Source of the DNA: Acidobacteriaceae bacterium | GTDB taxonomy: Bacteria; Acidobacteriota; Terriglobia; Bryobacterales; Bryobacteraceae | Direction of reading: 5' to 3' | Assembly (NCBI GenBank): GCA_019233375.1 | Contig: JAFAMM010000025.1 | Location: forward strand, 1 to 38,094 | DNA length: 38,094 nucleotides | In this document: positions 1 to 34,682 of the stretch, one piece after another | How positions within the stretch are numbered: position 1 is the first letter of the stretch | Layout: each line of letters opens with the position of its first letter | Notes under the pieces: model-generated | The model's database searches: none | Told to the model about the DNA's origin: nothing | Seen by the model: the letters and a program-made list of their open reading frames with translations, nothing else | Made by a program: the position numbers and the translations under genes

Positions 1-289
1 CCGCCGCATGCAGCGCGCGATATCGGAGTATCGGATTCTCGGTATCACGACGAATGTTTCTTTCTTTGACCGGCTGATGCTTGATCCACAATGGCAGGAC
101 GGCCAGCTTCATACGGCCTTCCTCGACGAGTTCATGGCTCGCTGGCAACCCTCGGCTCCGGACTCCGGCGGACTTGTCGCCTCGGTCCTCGCAGCCGCAC
201 AGACCCGTGCCGCCAACGGGAATCCTGTGCGAGTATCGGCGTCGCAGAGCCTTTGGAAGACCGAAGGCCGGCGCAGCTTGAACCGCTAA
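1..289 (+). CDS. Biotin carboxylase subunit, C-terminal end (partial)
   Basis: This is the 3' end of a gene that enters from the left edge; the frame is open from base 2 and stops at 287-289. The opening residues, RRMQRAISEYRILGITTNV, match the C-terminal domain of biotin carboxylases of acyl-CoA carboxylases, where an arginine-rich helix is followed by EYxIxGIxTN. The enzyme carboxylates biotin on a carrier protein using ATP and bicarbonate. The next gene, one base downstream, encodes a biotin carrier domain, which supports the call. The tail after about residue 50 is low in conserved motifs. Whether the substrate complex is acetyl-CoA, propionyl-CoA or methylcrotonyl-CoA carboxylase cannot be told, because the carboxyltransferase subunit is not in the window. 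Confidence 0.85.
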   Translation, partial: RRMQRAISEYRILGITTNVSFFDRLMLDPQWQDGQLHTAFLDEFMARWQPSAPDSGGLVASVLAAAQTRAANGNPVRVSASQSLWKTEGRRSLNR

Positions 290-26300: not shown

Positions 26301-26366
26301 CGCGGTTTGTCTTGCAGCTTAAGCGGCAACTGCAGACAGGAAAATGGCTTGCATCTGACCAAAATG

Positions 26367-26394
26367 TTGACAAACAAATAGCTGAAAATAAGAG
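26367..26394 (+). promoter_or_regulatory. Candidate promoter of the winged-helix/TPR gene
   Basis: TTGACA (26367-26372) is a perfect -35. TAAGAG (26389-26394) at 16 bases is a poor -10. It lies 14-40 bases before the chosen start at 26408, which would give a very short leader, so the assignment is weak. Confidence 0.25.
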
Positions 26395-26407
26395 TGTTCA
26401 AACTGTC

Positions 26408-28087
26408 ATGAACACGCGCTTCGGAGCATTCGAGGTCGATCTCGATCGCCGGCGGCTGTTGAAAAGGGGTGTGCCGATCGCCTTGCGTGAACAGTCCTTT
26501 CAAGTGCTCGCTGCTCTTATGGAACACGCAGGCGAGATTGTCACTCGCGAAGAACTGCGTCGTCGACTGTGGGCCTCTGACACATTTGTCGATTTCGAAG
26601 TAGCACTGAATTCCGCGGTCAGCCGGTTGCGCGACGCTCTGGGCGATTCCGCCGAGTGTCCCAGCTTCATCGAAACCATTCCGAAGCGCGGCTATCGATT
26701 CGTCGTACCCATACCCAAACGGCCCGCCGTGGCCGTGATGCCGTTCGCAAACCAGACAGCAGATGCCAAGGACGACTATCTTAGCGATGGATTGACCGAC
26801 GAGTTGATCCGCGTCTTATCCCGCATCGATGGATTGAAGGTCACTGCTGGCAGCGTGGTATTTCGCTTCAAAGGCCAGCGTTGCGATGCAAGACAGGTCG
26901 GGCGGGAACTGGGTGTCGAAGCCGTCCTTGAAGGATCGGTATCGAGGGCGGGAGACCGCATTCGCATCACGGTTAACCTCGTCGGAGTGAAAGATGGCTT
27001 CAACCTTTGGGCGCAACGCTTCGACGGCAATCTGGCCGGCCTCTTCGCTATCCAGGATGAGGTCTGCGGTGCGGTAGCAGAAGCGCTGCACATCCGCCTG
27101 GCGTCTCAGCTGCCGAAAACGCACCCAAGCAACGCAAACGCCTACATGCAGCACCTGAAGGGAACCTATCTCCTTAAAAGGCGCCGGCCGGACGGCATCC
27201 GGCGCGCTTTCGAATACTTGCAGGAAGCGATCCGGCTGGAACCCGATTACGCCGAGCCCTACTACGGTGCGGCCATGTTCTACATCGTGAGCACAGCATA
27301 CGGAGCGATGCCTCCGCGCACTGCCCTACCCGAGGCGGAAGCCTTGCTGCTGAAGGGGCTGGCGCTCGATGAGAATTCAGCAACTCTACACAGCACTTTG
27401 GGAATGCTCAGAATGTTTCAGTGGCGGTGGGCCGAATCGGAACAGGAACACCGGCGAGCTATCAATCTCGAGCCGGGGAATGCATTTCCGCACATGTGTT
27501 ATCCCATTTTGTGCAGTTTCCTCGGACGGCATGAAGAAGCGGTGTTCCATGCCGTGAAAGCCGTCGAACTCGACCCCCTCGACTTGATGACCAACTTCCG
27601 CCTCGTGCAGGCCACCTGTTATGCACGGCGCTATGAAGAAGCCGTGCGCGCTGGCCGCATCGCTATCGAGCTGACGCCAGACTCGCCCTACACCTACTTT
27701 TACCTGGCCTTGTCTTTGGCGGCATTGGGCTCAAGCGAAGAAGCTTGGGACATGGCAAATGCTGGTAGAAAACTCGCCGGCGGTATGCCGCTGGGCGAGG
27801 GGTACTTTGGTTACCTTGCCGGAGCGCTGGGGCACGCAACCGAAGCCCGCACCGTAATCAGGAATTTGCAGGCTCGTCGCGAGCAAGCCTATTCGCCGGC
27901 ATTACCCATCGTCGGAACTTATCTCGGTTTGGGGGAAACCGCCGATGCCCTAAGCTGGCTGCAAACAGCTCTGACCGAACGCGACCCCTTCTTGGGATCG
28001 ATGATGGTGTTCCCGGCTTACGATCGCATACGGGATCACCTCGAATTCAAGCGCGTGGCAGGCGAACTCAAACTCTCGACCGGCTAA
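26408..28087 (+). CDS. Winged-helix regulator with TolB-like domain and TPR repeats
   Basis: From ATG 26408 the protein has 559 residues. Residues 1-100 form an OmpR/CadC-type winged helix: FGAFEVDLDRRRLLKRG, ILREQ-like IALREQSFQVLAALM, REELRRRLW, LNSAVSRLRDALGD and PKRGYRFV. Residues 105-225 resemble the TolB/FlgO-like domain found after such helices (AVMPFANQTADAKDDYLSDGLTDEL, FNLWAQRFD). The rest is TPR repeats, for example AFEYLQEAIRLEPDYAEPYYG and LGRHEEAVFHAVKAVELDPLD. CadC proteins have a membrane helix after the DNA-binding domain; none is visible here, so this one is probably soluble. It is divergent from the MFS gene and may regulate it. The frame is open upstream to 26312, but MNTRFGAFEV is the normal start. 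Confidence 0.85.
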   Translation: MNTRFGAFEVDLDRRRLLKRGVPIALREQSFQVLAALMEHAGEIVTREELRRRLWASDTFVDFEVALNSAVSRLRDALGDSAECPSFIETIPKRGYRFVVPIPKRPAVAVMPFANQTADAKDDYLSDGLTDELIRVLSRIDGLKVTAGSVVFRFKGQRCDARQVGRELGVEAVLEGSVSRAGDRIRITVNLVGVKDGFNLWAQRFDGNLAGLFAIQDEVCGAVAEALHIRLASQLPKTHPSNANAYMQHLKGTYLLKRRRPDGIRRAFEYLQEAIRLEPDYAEPYYGAAMFYIVSTAYGAMPPRTALPEAEALLLKGLALDENSATLHSTLGMLRMFQWRWAESEQEHRRAINLEPGNAFPHMCYPILCSFLGRHEEAVFHAVKAVELDPLDLMTNFRLVQATCYARRYEEAVRAGRIAIELTPDSPYTYFYLALSLAALGSSEEAWDMANAGRKLAGGMPLGEGYFGYLAGALGHATEARTVIRNLQARREQAYSPALPIVGTYLGLGETADALSWLQTALTERDPFLGSMMVFPAYDRIRDHLEFKRVAGELKLSTG

Positions 28088-29358: not shown

Positions 29359-29469
29359 TGTCCGCCGTGTTAAGCCGAGCCGGCGCTCCATTCTGAAACT
29401 CGGTCACCCCAAAAAAGATCCCTGGGTGTGCGGGGCGATGGGCGACAGTCGACCACGTCATATCGCGCC

Positions 29470-29489
29470 TTGTCCACAAGTAATCCACA
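29470..29489 (+). promoter_or_regulatory. Two near-consensus DnaA boxes upstream of nrdJ
   Basis: TTGTCCACA (29470-29478) and TAATCCACA (29481-29489) each differ by one base from TTATCCACA and lie in the same orientation, 11 bases apart. They sit about 35-50 bases upstream of the candidate nrdJ -35 element. DnaA control of ribonucleotide reductase is known for E. coli nrdAB; here it is a prediction. Confidence 0.45.
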
Positions 29490-29519
29490 ATATGTGGTAC
29501 TGACGTAGCAAATTCTGTA

Positions 29520-29548
29520 TTGACGGATGCGAAAATAAGAGTTTAGAT
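29520..29548 (+). promoter_or_regulatory. Sigma70-like promoter of nrdJ
   Basis: TTGACG (29520-29525) and TTAGAT (29543-29548) are separated by exactly 17 bases. This is the best -35/-10 pair between the acyltransferase gene and nrdJ. Confidence 0.55.
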
Positions 29549-29572
29549 AGGTACTGCAGCACGCAGCACCTA
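29548..29572 (+). repeat. Inverted repeat in the nrdJ leader
   Basis: TAGGT-A-CTGC and GCAG-C-ACCTA pair with a single A/C mismatch around a 5-base loop. It starts at the candidate -10, so it could be an operator or the first hairpin of the transcript. There is no cobalamin riboswitch consensus here. Confidence 0.4.
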
Positions 29573-29604
29573 CCGCCCCCGAAGAAAGGCCATCAACCCC
29601 GCCG

Positions 29605-32427
29605 ATGGGACAGCTTAGTGTAAACATAGCCCTTAAAGTGAAGGAACTGCATCGTTCGCGAAAGAAAGAGGAGCGCACCGGCGTGTCGTTCCCCCGCTTC
29701 TTCACCAGCAAGCTGGAAGCGGGTACAACCCCGTATGACCTTGTTCCCTGGGAAAACCGAACCGCCACGATCGGAAATGACAAGGGATCTCTGATTTTCG
29801 AGCAGCGCGACGTCGAGGTGCCTGCCGACTGGTCGCAGACCGCTACAAACATTGTTGCCAGCAAGTATTTCCACGGCCGAATGGGCACTCCCGAGCGCGA
29901 AACAAGCGTCGCCCAGCTTGTTCACCGGGTGGTGGACACCATTACCGGCTGGGGCCTCTCCGGCAACTACTTCAAGACTGCGGAAGACGGCGAAAACTTC
30001 CGCCACGAACTCGCCCACCTCATGCTCGCGCAGAAGGCCTGTTTCAATTCTCCGGTGTGGTTCAACGTCGGCGTGCGCGAATCTCGCGGCTATGGCTTCT
30101 ATTTCGACGAGGCCTCGGAAACAGTCAAGAAGCTGCTGCCCGGCGAGAATCATCCGCAATGCTCCGCGTGTTTCATCAACTCCGTGTCAGACAATCTCGA
30201 ATCTATACTGGATCTCGCGAAAACGGAGGGCATGCTGTTCAAGTGGGGTTCCGGCACAGGCACGAATCTATCGGCTATCCGTGAAGAGGACGCACTTCTA
30301 TGGGGCGGTGGCCGCGCCTCCGGACCGCTCAGCTTTATGAAAGGCTTTGATGCGTTTGCCGGCGTAATCAAATCCGGCGGGAAAACCCGTCGCGCCGCCA
30401 AAATGGTGATTCTCAATGCCGATCACCCGGACATCGAAAACTTTGTGTGGTGTAAAGCCCGGGAGGAGAAAAAAGCGCACAGCTTGATCGATGCCGGCTA
30501 TGACTCGTCTCTGGATGGAGACGCCTATAGTTCGATTTTCTTCCAGAACGCCAATAACTCCGTACGGGCGACCGACGACTTCATGCAGGCGGTGGTGAAC
30601 GATGGCGACTGGTGGACGCGCGGCGTAGTCAGCCAGCAACCTGTCAAACGGCTGCGCGCACGTGAGCTGATGCGGGAGATCGCCGAGGCCGCACATCAAT
30701 GCGGCGACCCAGGCATGCAGTTCGATACCACCATCAATCGCTGGCACACATCGAAGAAAACGGCACGCATCAACGCCTCTAACCCCTGCTCCGAGTATAT
30801 GTTCCTCGATGATTCGGCCTGCAATCTGTCGTCGCTGAACCTGATGAAGTTTGTCGCGCCCGGCGGCACCTTCGACGTCGAGGCGTTCCGGCACGCCGTC
30901 GACACGATGATCCTGGCCCAGGAAATTCTGGTTGATAACGCGAGCTATCCCACAGAGAAGATAGCCAAGAACTCCCACGAGTTCCGCCCCCTTGGCCTTG
31001 GCTATGCCAATCTTGGCGCGCTGCTGATGTCGCTCGGCCTTCCTTACGACAGCGATAAAGGCCGTGACTTCGCGGCCGCCATCACAGCTATCATGTGCGG
31101 CCAGGCTTATCTCACCAGCGCTCGCATCGCCGGCGCAGTCGGGCCATGCCCCGGCTACGGGGAGAACGAGGATTCGTTCCTCGAAGTCATCCGCATGCAC
31201 TGGAATGCCGTTAATGGCATCGACAGCAAGCGCGTACCGCCGGATATGTTCAAGGCCGCCGAAGACTGCTGGCGCGAAGCGTACGAAGCCGGATCGGTAG
31301 CCGGTTACCGCAACGCGCAGGTAACGGTGCTCGCTCCCACCGGCACCATCGGTTTCATGATGGATTGCGATACCACTGGCATTGAACCCGATCTCGCGCT
31401 AGTGAAGTACAAGAAGCTGGTCGGCGGCGGCGTGATCAAGATTGTCAACAATACAGTTCCACAGGCTCTGATTAAACTCGGCTACACCGCCGAGCAAACG
31501 GAACAGATCGTCAGCCACATTGACTCCACCGGTACTATCGAGGGCGGCCCCCATATCAAGCCCGAGCACCTGGCAGTCTTCGACTGCAGCTTCCGTCCAC
31601 AAAACGGCGTTCGCTTCATCCACCACACCGGACACATCCATATGATGGCGGCCGTTCAGCCGTTCATCTCTGGCGCAATCTCCAAGACCATCAACATGCC
31701 GGAAGAATCCACGGTCGATGACATTATGGCTGCCTACGTCGAAAGCTGGCGGCTCGGCCTCAAGGCAGTTGCCATTTACCGGGACGGCTCCAAGCGAGTG
31801 CAGCCGCTCAGCTCCGGCACTGGTAAAAGCGAAAAGAAAGTGACAGCACTCAGTCCCGTCCAGCCGCAGATCGTAGAAAAGATTGTCTACCGGCCGGACC
31901 GGCGCAAACTGCCAGATGAACGTCAATCGGTCACGCACAAGTTCTCTATCGGTGGCCATGAGGGCTACATCACAGTAGGACTTTACGAAGACGGCACTCC
32001 CGGCGAAGTCTTTATCACCATGGCCAAAGAGGGGTCGACCATCTCCGGCCTCATGGATACGCTCGCAACGTCAATCAGTTACGGCCTGCAGTACGGCGTA
32101 CCGCTTAAGTTCTTCGTCGACAAGTTCAGCCATGTTCGCTTCGAACCGAGCGGCTGGACGGGCAATCAGCAGGTTCCTTATGCCAAGTCGATCATTGACT
32201 ACATATTCCGCTGGCTGGGTGCGCGCTTTCTCGGCATCCATGAAGGCAGCGAGGCGGGCGAAACGCTCAAACTCCGCCCCACAGAGCCCGACCCGCAAGT
32301 GGCTCTGCCCTTTGACGCCAACGTCGTCAGTGATGCTCCGCTCTGTTCTGAATGCGGCAGCATTATGACCCGCAACGGTTCCTGCTACAAGTGCGAGAAC
32401 TGCGGCGGCACTTCGGGCTGCTCTTAA
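29605..32427 (+). CDS. nrdJ: Adenosylcobalamin-dependent ribonucleotide reductase (class II)
   Basis: The 940-residue protein is a B12-dependent RNR. HPQCSACFINSV carries the redox cysteine C186, KWGSGTGTNLS the nucleotide region, NPCSEYMFLDDSACNLSSLNL (393 onward) the N-C-E radical and proton-relay residues, and LAPTGTIGFMMDCDTTGIEP the later barrel. The C-terminus ends in a Cys-rich tail, CSECGSIMTRNGSCYKCENC, which recycles the active-site disulfide. It reduces ribonucleotides to deoxyribonucleotides without oxygen dependence. The N-terminal part (EVPADWSQTATNIVASKYF) matches the long NrdJ form. A promoter and DnaA boxes precede it. Confidence 0.97.
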   Translation: MGQLSVNIALKVKELHRSRKKEERTGVSFPRFFTSKLEAGTTPYDLVPWENRTATIGNDKGSLIFEQRDVEVPADWSQTATNIVASKYFHGRMGTPERETSVAQLVHRVVDTITGWGLSGNYFKTAEDGENFRHELAHLMLAQKACFNSPVWFNVGVRESRGYGFYFDEASETVKKLLPGENHPQCSACFINSVSDNLESILDLAKTEGMLFKWGSGTGTNLSAIREEDALLWGGGRASGPLSFMKGFDAFAGVIKSGGKTRRAAKMVILNADHPDIENFVWCKAREEKKAHSLIDAGYDSSLDGDAYSSIFFQNANNSVRATDDFMQAVVNDGDWWTRGVVSQQPVKRLRARELMREIAEAAHQCGDPGMQFDTTINRWHTSKKTARINASNPCSEYMFLDDSACNLSSLNLMKFVAPGGTFDVEAFRHAVDTMILAQEILVDNASYPTEKIAKNSHEFRPLGLGYANLGALLMSLGLPYDSDKGRDFAAAITAIMCGQAYLTSARIAGAVGPCPGYGENEDSFLEVIRMHWNAVNGIDSKRVPPDMFKAAEDCWREAYEAGSVAGYRNAQVTVLAPTGTIGFMMDCDTTGIEPDLALVKYKKLVGGGVIKIVNNTVPQALIKLGYTAEQTEQIVSHIDSTGTIEGGPHIKPEHLAVFDCSFRPQNGVRFIHHTGHIHMMAAVQPFISGAISKTINMPEESTVDDIMAAYVESWRLGLKAVAIYRDGSKRVQPLSSGTGKSEKKVTALSPVQPQIVEKIVYRPDRRKLPDERQSVTHKFSIGGHEGYITVGLYEDGTPGEVFITMAKEGSTISGLMDTLATSISYGLQYGVPLKFFVDKFSHVRFEPSGWTGNQQVPYAKSIIDYIFRWLGARFLGIHEGSEAGETLKLRPTEPDPQVALPFDANVVSDAPLCSECGSIMTRNGSCYKCENCGGTSGCS

Positions 32428-32482: not shown

Positions 32483-34243
32483 TTATACGAAACAGAGCCC
32501 ACGCTCAGCTTCCTCCGGCGCATCGGAGCGCGGAACCAGCAACGGATAGCCGTGATCCCTTTGCGCCTTCCTGAGTGCCCCAATCTGTTCGTCAAAATCA
32601 AATTCGTGCATCTGCATAACCGCACGGATAAGATCCGGATCATCTGTGTATGAGCGAATGAGGCCGAAAACTGCCAGTGCCCTAACCAGATCGCCGTTTT
32701 CTCCAAGAATCCGCCAAAAGCCTCTCTCTTCCAGCATTTGCCTGCACTGCATAAGGTTGGCGTCGGGAACGAAGGCCAGCGCGAAATTGAGGAACAAATT
32801 GGTAATGGAATTGTTGGCGGCGGTCTGGAATCCAGTGAGCCCAGCGCTGTGATTTTCTTGCTCTGTCAGATCGGTCTGGATTGCGTGACGCATGGCCTCG
32901 CTTAACAGCACCTGTGCGATCGCAACGACGGCAATGCGCCGCGTCGTCTTCGACACTCGTTCCGGAAACTCGGCGCACACAGGTTCTGATTCCCGCACGC
33001 AGATCAGCCCAAGCGCAAGATCATCAGGAACGAAGTACAGAGCAAGTTGGCCTTCGCCGGCCCCCGCCGGTGCGCCCGCGAGTGCTGGCGCAGCCAGACA
33101 CGGAATCCCGTGAAACTCGACTTTGCAGTCGCCCTGCCCGCTGACTGTGACATCCACCTTATCGATTCGGATTCGTATCAGTACCCTGTGCGCTACCGGC
33201 GCCCAATCCACAAGGGCATCGGGTGTATTGCCTCCGGCGAGCGCAGCGGCAAGTGTGCGGCGCGTCTCCTCAACCCTTTGTCTCCGTTCGTCACCAGCAT
33301 TTGGTTCTAGCCAGCCGTGAAAGACCTGCGTGCCGGGTCGTCCCGCAGTCGTCTCTCGAATCTCAGCCTCCATCTGCTGACTTGTGCTCTCAACGGCTTT
33401 GCTGTCCAGATACAAACATTCCCAACGGCCACTCAATCCCCCGGTCTCCACGATGGCATTTTCGAACTCAGCTACCCGATCCTCGAGATCTGCAGAACCG
33501 AATAGCTTGAGCCGTTCGTGCAGCCTGAGTACAAGCTGCTGGAGCATTATCGTCTCTTCAATTCGCTGGTTACGCAGGATGTCCACCATGACAGCATCCT
33601 GAAAGACGAGATTTCGCAGATAGGTCAGAAAAAGATCCGAGTCGGCAAGGCGCTTCGAGCGCTTTATCGCATTTGCCCAGCAGCTCTTGACCGAAAGGTA
33701 GCCCAGTAGGTAACCGCCATCGTCCGTGCGCAGCGGGCGCACCAACACATCGCTCTTTCTCCGAAGCGCCAATTCCGATGTTCGGTACGCGCATAGAATG
33801 TACCTGGCTTTCTGGACAGCGTCCAAGTCCTCTGGAATTTCGTCCGATCGCCCGAACAGATACGCAAGCCATCCCATGACAGGGGAAATAATTTCGGAGG
33901 AACCTGGGTAGGCATCAAACTCGGCAAACAGCGCTATTCCTTCCATCAGCGGTTCGAGCGCCTGCCGCGCGGCCTGCACTTTGGCCCACATCGTCCCGCA
34001 AATCGGGTGTTGGACCACCGGCGATTGAATCCACATTCGCTGCACTTGGAGTTCGATCTGCGCCAAAGCCGTTCCCACCAAGTCGGTGAGGCACCAATGA
34101 TGGGTCGCTTCGTGAAGAAACGAAGGCAGCATGAAATCCGGGAGCTTTCCGTCAAGAGCGGCGCTCAGATACTCGAAGATCGGCCTTTCGGAAAGAAAGA
34201 GGGAGTTCGACAGCGGGTCCAGGCTTGCCTTGCCGGGTAACAT
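32483..34243 (-). CDS. Large HExxH-motif protein of unknown family
   Basis: From ATG 34243 the protein has 586 residues and I recognise no named family. Near the N-terminus FLHEATHHW gives an HExxH zinc-peptidase motif (H44, E45, H48), and MEGIALFAEFDA at about 100-111 gives a glutamate (E101) where gluzincins have their third ligand. The middle and C-terminus are helical, with a beta-rich segment near residues 350-450 (RVLIRIRIDKVDVTVSG). There is no signal peptide, so it should act in the cytoplasm. GAAAGGA lies 5 bases before the ATG (complement of 34249-34255). The gene follows a small EACC1-like protein gene after 37 bases on the same strand and forms a two-gene unit with it. Confidence 0.75.
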   Translation of the reverse strand: MLPGKASLDPLSNSLFLSERPIFEYLSAALDGKLPDFMLPSFLHEATHHWCLTDLVGTALAQIELQVQRMWIQSPVVQHPICGTMWAKVQAARQALEPLMEGIALFAEFDAYPGSSEIISPVMGWLAYLFGRSDEIPEDLDAVQKARYILCAYRTSELALRRKSDVLVRPLRTDDGGYLLGYLSVKSCWANAIKRSKRLADSDLFLTYLRNLVFQDAVMVDILRNQRIEETIMLQQLVLRLHERLKLFGSADLEDRVAEFENAIVETGGLSGRWECLYLDSKAVESTSQQMEAEIRETTAGRPGTQVFHGWLEPNAGDERRQRVEETRRTLAAALAGGNTPDALVDWAPVAHRVLIRIRIDKVDVTVSGQGDCKVEFHGIPCLAAPALAGAPAGAGEGQLALYFVPDDLALGLICVRESEPVCAEFPERVSKTTRRIAVVAIAQVLLSEAMRHAIQTDLTEQENHSAGLTGFQTAANNSITNLFLNFALAFVPDANLMQCRQMLEERGFWRILGENGDLVRALAVFGLIRSYTDDPDLIRAVMQMHEFDFDEQIGALRKAQRDHGYPLLVPRSDAPEEAERGLCFV

Positions 34244-34280
34244 GCAGGTCCTTTCGGGGACCCGAATCTCGTTCAGGCCA

Positions 34281-34682
34281 CTACTTTGGCTGGTTCTGGC
34301 CAGCGGTCTCGTTGCTCGTCGCAAGCGCAGCGATATCGGTCAACTGCTTGACGACCTCGGCCTTAAGTGCATCCGAAGAGCTGGATTTGATCAGTAGCTT
34401 GCGGCGGACCCTGGCAGTGTCCGTTTCAATTTCAATCTGATCTTTCAGGACGCTGCGGCGGCTTCCATGCGAGAGCCACAGCGCTAGCGAGCTTCCAATA
34501 ATGGGAACAGCCAGGGCCGTGATCTCGATAATCGCCGTCCATGTTCCCGGCTCGCCTAACTGGCCGGAGGGCGTTGCCTTGCGCTGAAATTCGAGCGTGC
34601 CCGGTTCGATGATCTTTTCCAGCTCAAGGCGATCAAGTTCGGTCAGACCGTTGATTCGAAGCCGGATTTGATTTCCTTCCAT
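34281..34682 (-). CDS. Small membrane-associated protein resembling EACC1
   Basis: The 133-residue protein has an N-terminal alpha/beta part (NQIRLRINGLTELDRLELEK), a hydrophobic helix (TAIIEITALAVPIIGSSLAL, about residues 49-68) and a charged C-terminal part (DQIEIETDTARVRRKLLIK, then KAEVVKQL). This order, beta strands, a membrane helix, then a basic beta/helix tail, is like effector-associated constant component 1 (EACC1), which accompanies effector genes in NTP-dependent conflict systems. I am judging from memory of the layout, so the call is tentative. GGAGG precedes the ATG by 4 bases (complement of 34687-34691). It leads the unit with the HExxH gene. Confidence 0.6.
   Translation of the reverse strand: MEGNQIRLRINGLTELDRLELEKIIEPGTLEFQRKATPSGQLGEPGTWTAIIEITALAVPIIGSSLALWLSHGSRRSVLKDQIEIETDTARVRRKLLIKSSSSDALKAEVVKQLTDIAALATSNETAGQNQPK

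What the first reader, a model, noticed from the sequence alone, without database searches (positions are those of the whole stretch)
29470..29572. DnaA boxes, promoter and inverted repeat ahead of nrdJ
Two 9-mers one base away from the DnaA consensus lie 11 bases apart, upstream of a TTGACG-17-TTAGAT promoter and a nearly perfect inverted repeat. DnaA-ATP control of ribonucleotide reductase is known in E. coli for class Ia; for a class II enzyme it would couple dNTP supply to initiation in this lineage.
Basis: partly seen in the sequence, partly recalled or inferred. Interest (0 to 1): 0.5.

Follow-up and report, generated by a model that had tools for sequence, protein, structure and literature searches.

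The report
Replication-initiator boxes inside RNR repressor site
Ahead of the only DNA-building-block enzyme gene found in this Acidobacterium lies a small stretch in which paired sites for the replication initiator DnaA are interleaved with paired sites of the dNTP-sensing repressor NrdR, which suggests that the supply of DNA building blocks is tied to the start of replication.

Summary
TTGTCCACA-AG-TAATCCACA (29470-29489) is a 'double DnaA box' with a 2-bp gap, a spacing that E. coli DnaA prefers. It is the only such pair in the window (0.01 expected). The block lies upstream of nrdJ in 13 of the 15 genus genomes whose nrdJ start was found (once inverted; first box weak in three), plus one further relative, between unconserved flanks. 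A second genus (7 of 7 sampled genomes), and less surely a third (3 of 3, by eye), have DnaA-box arrays ahead of nrdJ on the other strand and at other places. Box B overlaps the left half of NrdR box 2. The promoter is supported by its fixed distance; the inverted repeat is not supported. NrdJ is the only ribonucleotide reductase found in this genome. Best reading: DnaA activates nrdJ and dATP-loaded NrdR competes for the same DNA. Binding, sign and competition are inferred. New variant of a known kind (E. coli nrdAB).

The parts
29453..29468 (+). NrdR box 1, CCACGTCATATCGCGC
   Evidence: C-N8-G and central AT kept; starts 32 bp before box 2. In 13 of 13 aligned upstream regions both boxes keep C-N8-G at 31 or 32 bp. 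Degenerate here: in locus L003 this pair scores 24, the next best unrelated pair 23.
29470..29478 (+). DnaA box A, TTGTCCACA (relatives mostly TTCTYCACA)
   Evidence: Columns T4, A7, C8, A9 invariant in 13 of 13; position 5 variable, as is the N of TTATNCACA; mean column information 1.44 bits against 0.18 in the far flank.
29481..29489 (+). DnaA box B, TAATCCACA (relatives WWATCCACA; perfect TTATCCACA in L005, L132, L153)
   Evidence: Present in 13 forward copies and once inverted (L125). The preceding AT is not part of the NrdR motif: it precedes box 2 in 1 of 111 upstream regions of other genera.
29485..29500 (+). NrdR box 2, CCACAATATGTGGTAC; overlaps box B by 5 bp
   Evidence: C4 (anchored) and G13 in 13 of 13, central AT in 11 of 13.
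29520..29525 (+). -35 element TTGACG of nrdJ
   Evidence: TTGAC lies 37-39 bp after the start of box B in 11 of 13, 49 in L036 and 29 in L154.
29543..29548 (+). -10 element TTAGAT; predicted start about 29555
   Evidence: Best -10-like hexamer 16-18 nt after TTGAC in 13 of 13, 3-5 of 6 matches; no start site mapped.
29548..29572 (.). inverted repeat TAGGTACTGC-AGCAC-GCAGCACCTA over the predicted start
   Evidence: Present, but seen in only 4 of 14 carriers (by eye), z -1.46, no regulon; probably not part of the switch.
29605..32427 (+). nrdJ, adenosylcobalamin-dependent (class II) ribonucleotide reductase, 940 aa, no ATP-cone domain found
   Evidence: NCBIfam NF005122, 1433 bits against a cut-off of 859; Pfam PF02867, PF08471, PF12637 only.

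Best explanation
A composite regulatory site drives nrdJ, the only ribonucleotide reductase found in this genome. Two NrdR boxes 32 bp apart form an operator of the dATP-sensing repressor NrdR. Between and over them sit two head-to-tail DnaA boxes with a 2-bp gap; the second covers the left half of NrdR box 2. The promoter lies just downstream (box B centre near -70, box A near -81 relative to the predicted start), so the DnaA pair is in an activator-like position. Most likely DnaA, probably as a cooperative dimer, binds when active DnaA is plentiful around initiation and stimulates nrdJ. When dATP is high, NrdR takes the same DNA, bends it and shuts DnaA out. Shown by sequence comparison: both site types, their overlap, their conservation, the promoter spacing, the presence of NrdR and DnaA genes. 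Inferred: binding, the positive sign, ATP dependence, mutual exclusion.
For: 1. Only double-box match in the window, 0.01 expected. 2. In 14 of 14 carriers the best double-box hit of the 250 bp upstream is this site, gap always 2, 12 of 14 with at most 3 mismatches; shuffles reach 3 or fewer in 23 of 2,800. 3. Mean column information: box A 1.44, linker 0.30, box B 1.75 (anchored), far flank 0.18 bits. 4. The AT before NrdR box 2 is in all 14 carriers but in 1 of 111 other-genus upstream regions (of 116) where a box 2 could be located. 5. In the dnaA-dnaN gap, 7 of 11 genus dnaA loci examined have three DnaA boxes at fixed places, of the same type as box B (TTATCCACA, AAATCCACA, ATTTCCACA in the window's genome); the DnaA domain IV signature HHTTV is in 6 of 6 printed. 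6. All 7 sampled genomes of genus g37 have a double box with 0-2 mismatches at -213 to -217 on the other strand; shuffles reach 2 or fewer in 2 of 2,180. 7. Genus g8: two or three tandem 9-mers at 11-bp steps in the 3 genomes with a readable start, by eye. 8. NrdR pair: C-N8-G in both boxes at 31-32 bp in 13 of 13; NrdR gene present. 9. E. coli DnaA prefers boxes 2-3 bp apart, one partner being TTCTTCACA at DARS2, and binds upstream of nrdA and nrdD (PMC11317965, abstract and passages). 10. The window's divergent acyltransferase gene gave no match in 17 loci of 15 relatives, so the element goes with nrdJ.
Against: No binding or expression data. Box A is poor in L009, L010 and L130 (AACA or GACA) and has C or G at its third position in 10 of the 13 aligned copies, unlike the dnaA-dnaN boxes. 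G004 and G006 of the same genus lack the element and keep a NrdR pair with the -35 in its linker; G004 groups near the window in the tree. In G007 the whole module is inverted relative to the promoter, against a strict contact geometry. Of 109 other family genomes scanned (G004 and G006 among them), none outside g37 has a double box with at most 2 mismatches: 0 of 102. Genus g8 has no perfect TTWTNCACA in 3 of 3. The 13-row alignment was anchored on ATCCACAA, so the invariance of those columns is by construction. The NrdR pair of the window barely exceeds background in a simple scorer (24 against 23) and has a 16-bp linker; the E. coli nrdAB pair with a 16-bp linker bound NrdR very weakly. The boxes lie upstream of, not over, the promoter, unlike the usual NrdR arrangement.
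Confidence: 0.65

Rival explanations
1. Only NrdR acts here. Box B looks like a DnaA box because a NrdR box begins with CCACA, and box A is the decayed -35 (TTCTTGAC) that other genera keep in the linker.
For: In 111 of 116 upstream regions of other genera a box-2-like 16-mer follows TTG[AC][CT] by 6-12 bases, often as TTCTTGACG, and variants in the genus form a series TTTTTGACA, TTCTTAACA, TTCTTCACA, TTCTCCACA, TTGTCCACA. NrdR box 2 accounts for the CCACAA of box B.
Against: NrdR does not explain the AT before CCACA (14 of 14 carriers against 1 of 111) nor the conserved ACA ending of box A at 11 bp; a decaying -35 should not settle on the DnaA pattern. L132 and L153 keep a perfect TTATCCACA while the centre of their NrdR box 2 drifts. 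DnaA arrays in g37 lie outside the NrdR pair.
Confidence: 0.18
2. Another regulator that reads direct repeats at an 11-bp pitch, such as an OmpR/PhoB-type winged-helix protein, uses the CACA pair.
For: OmpR/PhoB-type proteins bind direct repeats at about 11 bp (recalled, no call).
Against: The 9-mers match the DnaA box position by position, including the free fifth base, and box B matches the lineage's own dnaA-dnaN boxes; g37 has perfect TTATCCACA and TTTTCCACA in one pair (L254).
Confidence: 0.1
3. The DnaA boxes are real but DnaA represses nrdJ, or uses the site as a DnaA reservoir, rather than activating it.
For: DnaA represses several E. coli promoters, and datA and DARS are DnaA sites with other roles. 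The module is inverted in G007, which a reservoir would tolerate.
Against: Position upstream of -35 and distances of 29, 37-39 and 49 bp suggest helical phasing with RNA polymerase; E. coli nrdA is described as positively regulated.
Confidence: 0.15

Closest known systems
E. coli nrdAB promoter (class Ia RNR): double DnaA box plus NrdR boxes
   Same: An RNR promoter with a closely spaced DnaA box pair (nrdA pair gTTATCCACAaagTTATGCACTt) and a NrdR pair.
   Different: Here the enzyme is class II and the sole RNR found; the DnaA pair lies between and over the NrdR boxes and shares 5 bp with NrdR box 2; gap 2, not 3. The E. coli NrdR pair overlaps the promoter or lies downstream of it.
E. coli nrdDG (class III RNR), DnaA-bound by ChIP-seq
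   Same: Shows that DnaA sites are not confined to class I RNR genes.
   Different: Class III; the boxes there were not compared here.
Streptomyces coelicolor nrdRJ operator (class II RNR under NrdR)
   Same: NrdR box pair upstream of a class II gene, about three helical turns apart, conserved C/G pairs.
   Different: No DnaA boxes in the passages I read; in the window's genome the NrdR match is on another contig (C149) than nrdJ (C259).
E. coli DARS2 double DnaA box TTCTTCACA-act-CTATCCACA
   Same: Its first box is the same 9-mer as box A of L011 and L036.
   Different: A DnaA-reactivating site, not an RNR promoter; gap 3.

Membership tests
Double DnaA box | two 9-mers on one strand, 2-3 bp apart | tested here: met
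   gap 2 at 29479-29480; gap 2 in 14 of 14 carriers
Double DnaA box | 9-mers near TTATNCACA and like the lineage's own boxes | tested here: met
   one mismatch each here; box B fits the dnaA-dnaN boxes, box A deviates at position 3
Double DnaA box | conserved in relatives | tested here: met
   13 of 15 genus genomes with a readable nrdJ start, plus L036; box A weak in three of these
Double DnaA box | DnaA binds it; both boxes needed | not testable with these tools
   needs gel shift, footprint or ChIP
NrdR operator | two palindromic 16-bp boxes about 31-32 bp apart | tested here: met
   31 bp in 10 and 32 bp in 3 of 13 (the window among the 3), 31 in inverted L125; spacing rule from PMC2892513 (passages). 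In the window the palindromes are degenerate
NrdR operator | conserved C and G pairs (C-N8-G) and central AT in each box | tested here: met
   C-N8-G in both boxes 13 of 13; central AT in 12 of 13 box 1 and 11 of 13 box 2
NrdR operator | boxes overlap the RNA polymerase site | tested here: not met
   box 2 ends at 29500, 19 bp before TTGACG at 29520; in other genera the -35 is in the linker. So: NrdR-type boxes in an unusual position
NrdR operator | NrdR encoded in the genome | tested here: met
   TIGR00244 match in G000:C149, 198.5 bits against a cut-off of 124.65
NrdR operator | NrdR binds it with ATP plus dATP | not testable with these tools
   needs binding assay
Sigma-70-type promoter | TTGACA-16..18-TATAAT-like hexamers | tested here: inconclusive
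   weak by consensus, kept in position in 13 of 13

The most novel reading that the evidence does not exclude
One 48-bp DNA segment acts as an either-or switch: DnaA (replication initiator) and dATP-loaded NrdR (dNTP sensor) compete for overlapping sites and so decide, from two opposite signals, whether the cell's only ribonucleotide reductase is made. This Acidobacteriota family has recruited DnaA to nrdJ at least twice, and probably three times, at different positions, which points to selection for coupling dNTP supply to initiation in bacteria whose NrdJ has no ATP-cone of its own.
Probability: 0.43. Interest if true: 0.7.

Novelty: new variant of a known kind. Interest (0 to 1): 0.55.

Why it matters
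DnaA control of ribonucleotide reductase is described in E. coli for class Ia, and DnaA binding for class III. This is comparative evidence for it at a class II gene that is the only RNR found in its genome, in a distant phylum, with separate placements in at least two genera. The nesting of DnaA boxes in a NrdR operator gives a directly testable model of how initiation timing and dNTP level could be integrated on one site. In four searches of the held library I saw no title or abstract start that describes DnaA control of nrdJ or overlapping DnaA and NrdR sites; of the papers listed there I looked at passages of five (PMC11317965, PMC2892513, PMC4009431, PMC4898720, PMC12176259) and did not open the others. 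Most subscription papers are not in that library.

Tried and rejected
Inverted repeat as operator or mRNA hairpin: z -1.46; exact pattern in 17 genus genomes only at nrdJ of G000 and G014, and fewer near-matches than the control (the pattern fixed a 5-nt loop, so the 6-nt loops of L004 and L005 would be missed); left unexplained.

RNA element: Rfam scan of the window found none at gathering thresholds; no tRNA.

Chance match of DnaA boxes to a NrdR half-site: my first reading, noted; given up after the column profile, the double-box scan and the g37 arrays.

NrdR pairs at 14 other loci (RNR-like: L246-L249; L251; nrdR: L113, L114, L116-L122): a simple scorer gave one plausible pair (L249), weak hits in L117, L118 and L119, none in the other 10, so it could not be tested whether NrdR pairs elsewhere lack the AT. 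A print of NrdR proteins matched nothing and was not repeated.

Genome-wide single DnaA boxes in the own genome: 120 against 115 for the reversed control, uninformative. CACANNNNATCCACA: 2 sites in the own genome, one of them nrdJ; 30 over 17 genomes against 6 for the control, 10 of the 30 at nrdJ; the other 20 were not examined. Perfect TTWTNCACA within 300 bp of nrdJ outside the genus: 16 against 4 for the reversed control in 116 genomes, 11 of the 16 in g37.

Rows dropped or set apart: L155 (second nrdJ-like locus of G005, contig end, no upstream sequence); L125 left out of the column counts because inverted; identical copies merged; regions with under 100 or 150 bases upstream left out; G003 and G016 have no nrdJ start match, so the genus count is of 15; dnaA loci L203 and L204 showed none of the three boxes, L196 and L198 not all three. 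In one search L154 was anchored on box A by mistake; mended.

Full report
Observation. The stretch reads TTGTCCACA (29470-29478), AG, TAATCCACA (29481-29489); TTGACG (29520-29525), 17 nt, TTAGAT (29543-29548); and an imperfect inverted repeat 29548-29572, ahead of a 940-codon ORF 29605-32427. The ORF is a class II ribonucleotide reductase, NrdJ (NF005122). As a pair with at most 3 mismatches to two TTATCCACA boxes with a 2-bp gap, this is the only site in 38,094 bases on both strands, against 0.01 expected.

The NrdR operator. Upstream regions of nrdJ from relatives show a common block: in other genera box 1, a linker with the -35 (often TTCTTGACG), then a box such as CCACTATATATTGGGG or, in genus g37, ACACAATATCTTGTGT. 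A box-2-like 16-mer 6-12 bases after TTG[AC][CT] was located in 111 of 116 family genomes outside the window's genus. This is the published NrdR arrangement: boxes about 31-32 bp apart (PMC2892513, passages), 15-bp linker in E. coli nrdHIEF and nrdDG and a central AT in most boxes (PMC12176259, passages), conserved C/G pairs (PMC9110341, passages). In the window the pair is 29453-29468 and 29485-29500. In 13 of 13 aligned upstream regions of the window's group both boxes keep C-N8-G at 31 bp (10) or 32 bp (3, the window included). The genome encodes NrdR. Against it: in the window the boxes are degenerate (24 points in a simple scorer, the next best pair of the same locus 23), and the 16-bp linker resembles the E. 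coli nrdAB box 0/1 pair, which bound NrdR very weakly.

The DnaA pair. In the same group the conserved columns form a 9-2-9 pattern: TTCTYCACA, two free bases, WWATCCACA, followed by the rest of NrdR box 2. Mean column information is 0.18 bits in the far flank, 1.44 in box A, 0.30 in the 2-bp linker, 1.75 in box B. The alignment was anchored on ATCCACAA, so box B's invariance is by construction. What is not by construction: the fixed 11-bp pitch and pattern of box A (T4, A7, C8, A9 in 13 of 13; CACA in 10 of 13, and in 11 of 14 with the inverted copy), its free fifth base, and the number of genomes that have the block at all: 13 of the 15 genus genomes with a readable nrdJ start (G004 and G006 lack it) plus L036. 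In an unanchored scan of the 250 bp upstream, the best double-box hit is this site in 14 of 14 carriers, gap 2 each time, with 1-4 mismatches (12 of 14 at most 3); dinucleotide shuffles reach 3 or fewer in 23 of 2,800. In G007 (L125) the whole module, both NrdR boxes and both DnaA boxes, is inverted.

DnaA or just NrdR? NrdR explains CCACAA in box B. It does not explain the AT before it: AT precedes box 2 in 1 of the 111 other-genus regions, against 14 of 14 carriers. The lineage's own DnaA boxes were read from the dnaA-dnaN gap of 11 genus dnaA loci: 7 have three boxes at fixed places near +14, +98 and +160 after dnaA (TTATCCACA, AAATCCACA and ATTTCCACA in the window's genome), L198 has two of them, L196 a shifted set, L203 and L204 none. 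Box B belongs to that type; box A differs at position 3. In E. coli, DnaA prefers pairs 2-3 bp apart, one partner can be TTCTTCACA (DARS2), and nrdA and nrdD are bound (PMC11317965, abstract and passages).

Separate placements. Of 109 other family genomes scanned (G004 and G006 among them), 7 have a double box with at most 2 mismatches, and these 7 are all the sampled members of one genus, g37: gap 2, reverse strand, 213-217 bases before the ATG, upstream of the NrdR pair (shuffles 2 of 2,180). A further box 21 bp on is matched in 6 of 7. The remaining 102 have none with 2 or fewer mismatches, so this is not a family-wide trait; of 65 further upstream regions outside the family or without a genome label, the only one at 2 or fewer is L036, itself a carrier. 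Genus g8 has two or three 9-mers of TGTGGAA type at 11-bp steps in the 3 genomes with a readable start, seen by eye, but no perfect TTWTNCACA. G166 has two perfect TTATCCACA.

Promoter. TTGAC starts 37-39 bp after the start of box B in 11 of 13, 49 in L036, 29 in L154, each with a best -10-like hexamer (3-5 of 6) 16-18 nt on. The three distance classes differ by about one helical turn, as expected if a protein on the boxes touches RNA polymerase, though the inverted G007 module fits this less well. The window's divergent acyltransferase gene gave no match in 17 loci of 15 relatives, so the element goes with nrdJ. Relative to a predicted start at 29555, box A is centred near -81, box B near -70, NrdR boxes near -62 and -94. 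In G004 and G006 and in other genera the NrdR pair straddles the -35 instead. A quick tree of NrdJ N-terminal parts puts the 14 carriers and these two in one clade (SH-aLRT 86, not starred), with G004 near the window (89); it does not settle whether the two are losses.

Stakes. No class I small subunit (PF00268) and no class III reductase (PF13597) were found in this 93.6% complete genome, and the NrdJ protein search found only nrdJ itself in it. NrdJ shows no ATP-cone in Pfam, so dATP feedback would fall to NrdR. Control of nrdJ would then be control of the new dNTPs.

Mechanism. Favoured: DnaA as activator and NrdR as dATP-dependent competitor on overlapping DNA. The overlap is a sequence fact; competition, sign and nucleotide dependence are inference from the E. 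coli and Streptomyces systems. The series of box A variants suggests that it arose from the old -35 in the linker after the promoter moved downstream (inference only).

Verdict.

Noticed in passing
L125 (G007), about 137 to 91 bases before nrdJ: The entire NrdR/DnaA module is inverted relative to the promoter and sits closer to it, keeping the 31-bp NrdR spacing and the 2-bp DnaA gap.
   Followed up: partly
L253, L254, L165, L178, L061, L173, L180 (genus g37): Reverse-strand DnaA-like boxes with steps of 11 and 21 bp upstream of the nrdJ NrdR pair; all three places matched in 4 of 7, the last in 6 of 7.
   Followed up: partly
L025, L295, L297 (genus g8): Two or three TGTGGAA-type 9-mers at 11-bp steps just upstream of the nrdJ promoter.
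   Followed up: partly
L001 and L193-L200, dnaA-dnaN intergenic region: DnaA boxes at fixed distances and a recurring TTTGCTATAATTTAG stretch: a candidate oriC or dnaN promoter.
   Followed up: no
window, 10 places: Ten 9-mers within one mismatch of TTATCCACA against 3.62 expected; none of 100 shuffles reached ten.
   Followed up: no
29485-29497 and 29590-29608 (-): Two terminator-like inverted repeats on the minus strand (2 found, 0.3 expected); the first is the palindrome CCACAATATGTGG of NrdR box 2.
   Followed up: no
G002:C128 and G016: G002 carries a second NrdJ-like gene (best piece 54% identical); G016 has only a 26%-identical RNR-like match and may lack this nrdJ.
   Followed up: no
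32483-34324 (-): 613-residue ORF downstream of nrdJ with no Pfam match.
   Followed up: no
26312-28087 (+): Winged-helix (Trans_reg_C) protein with TPR repeats.
   Followed up: no
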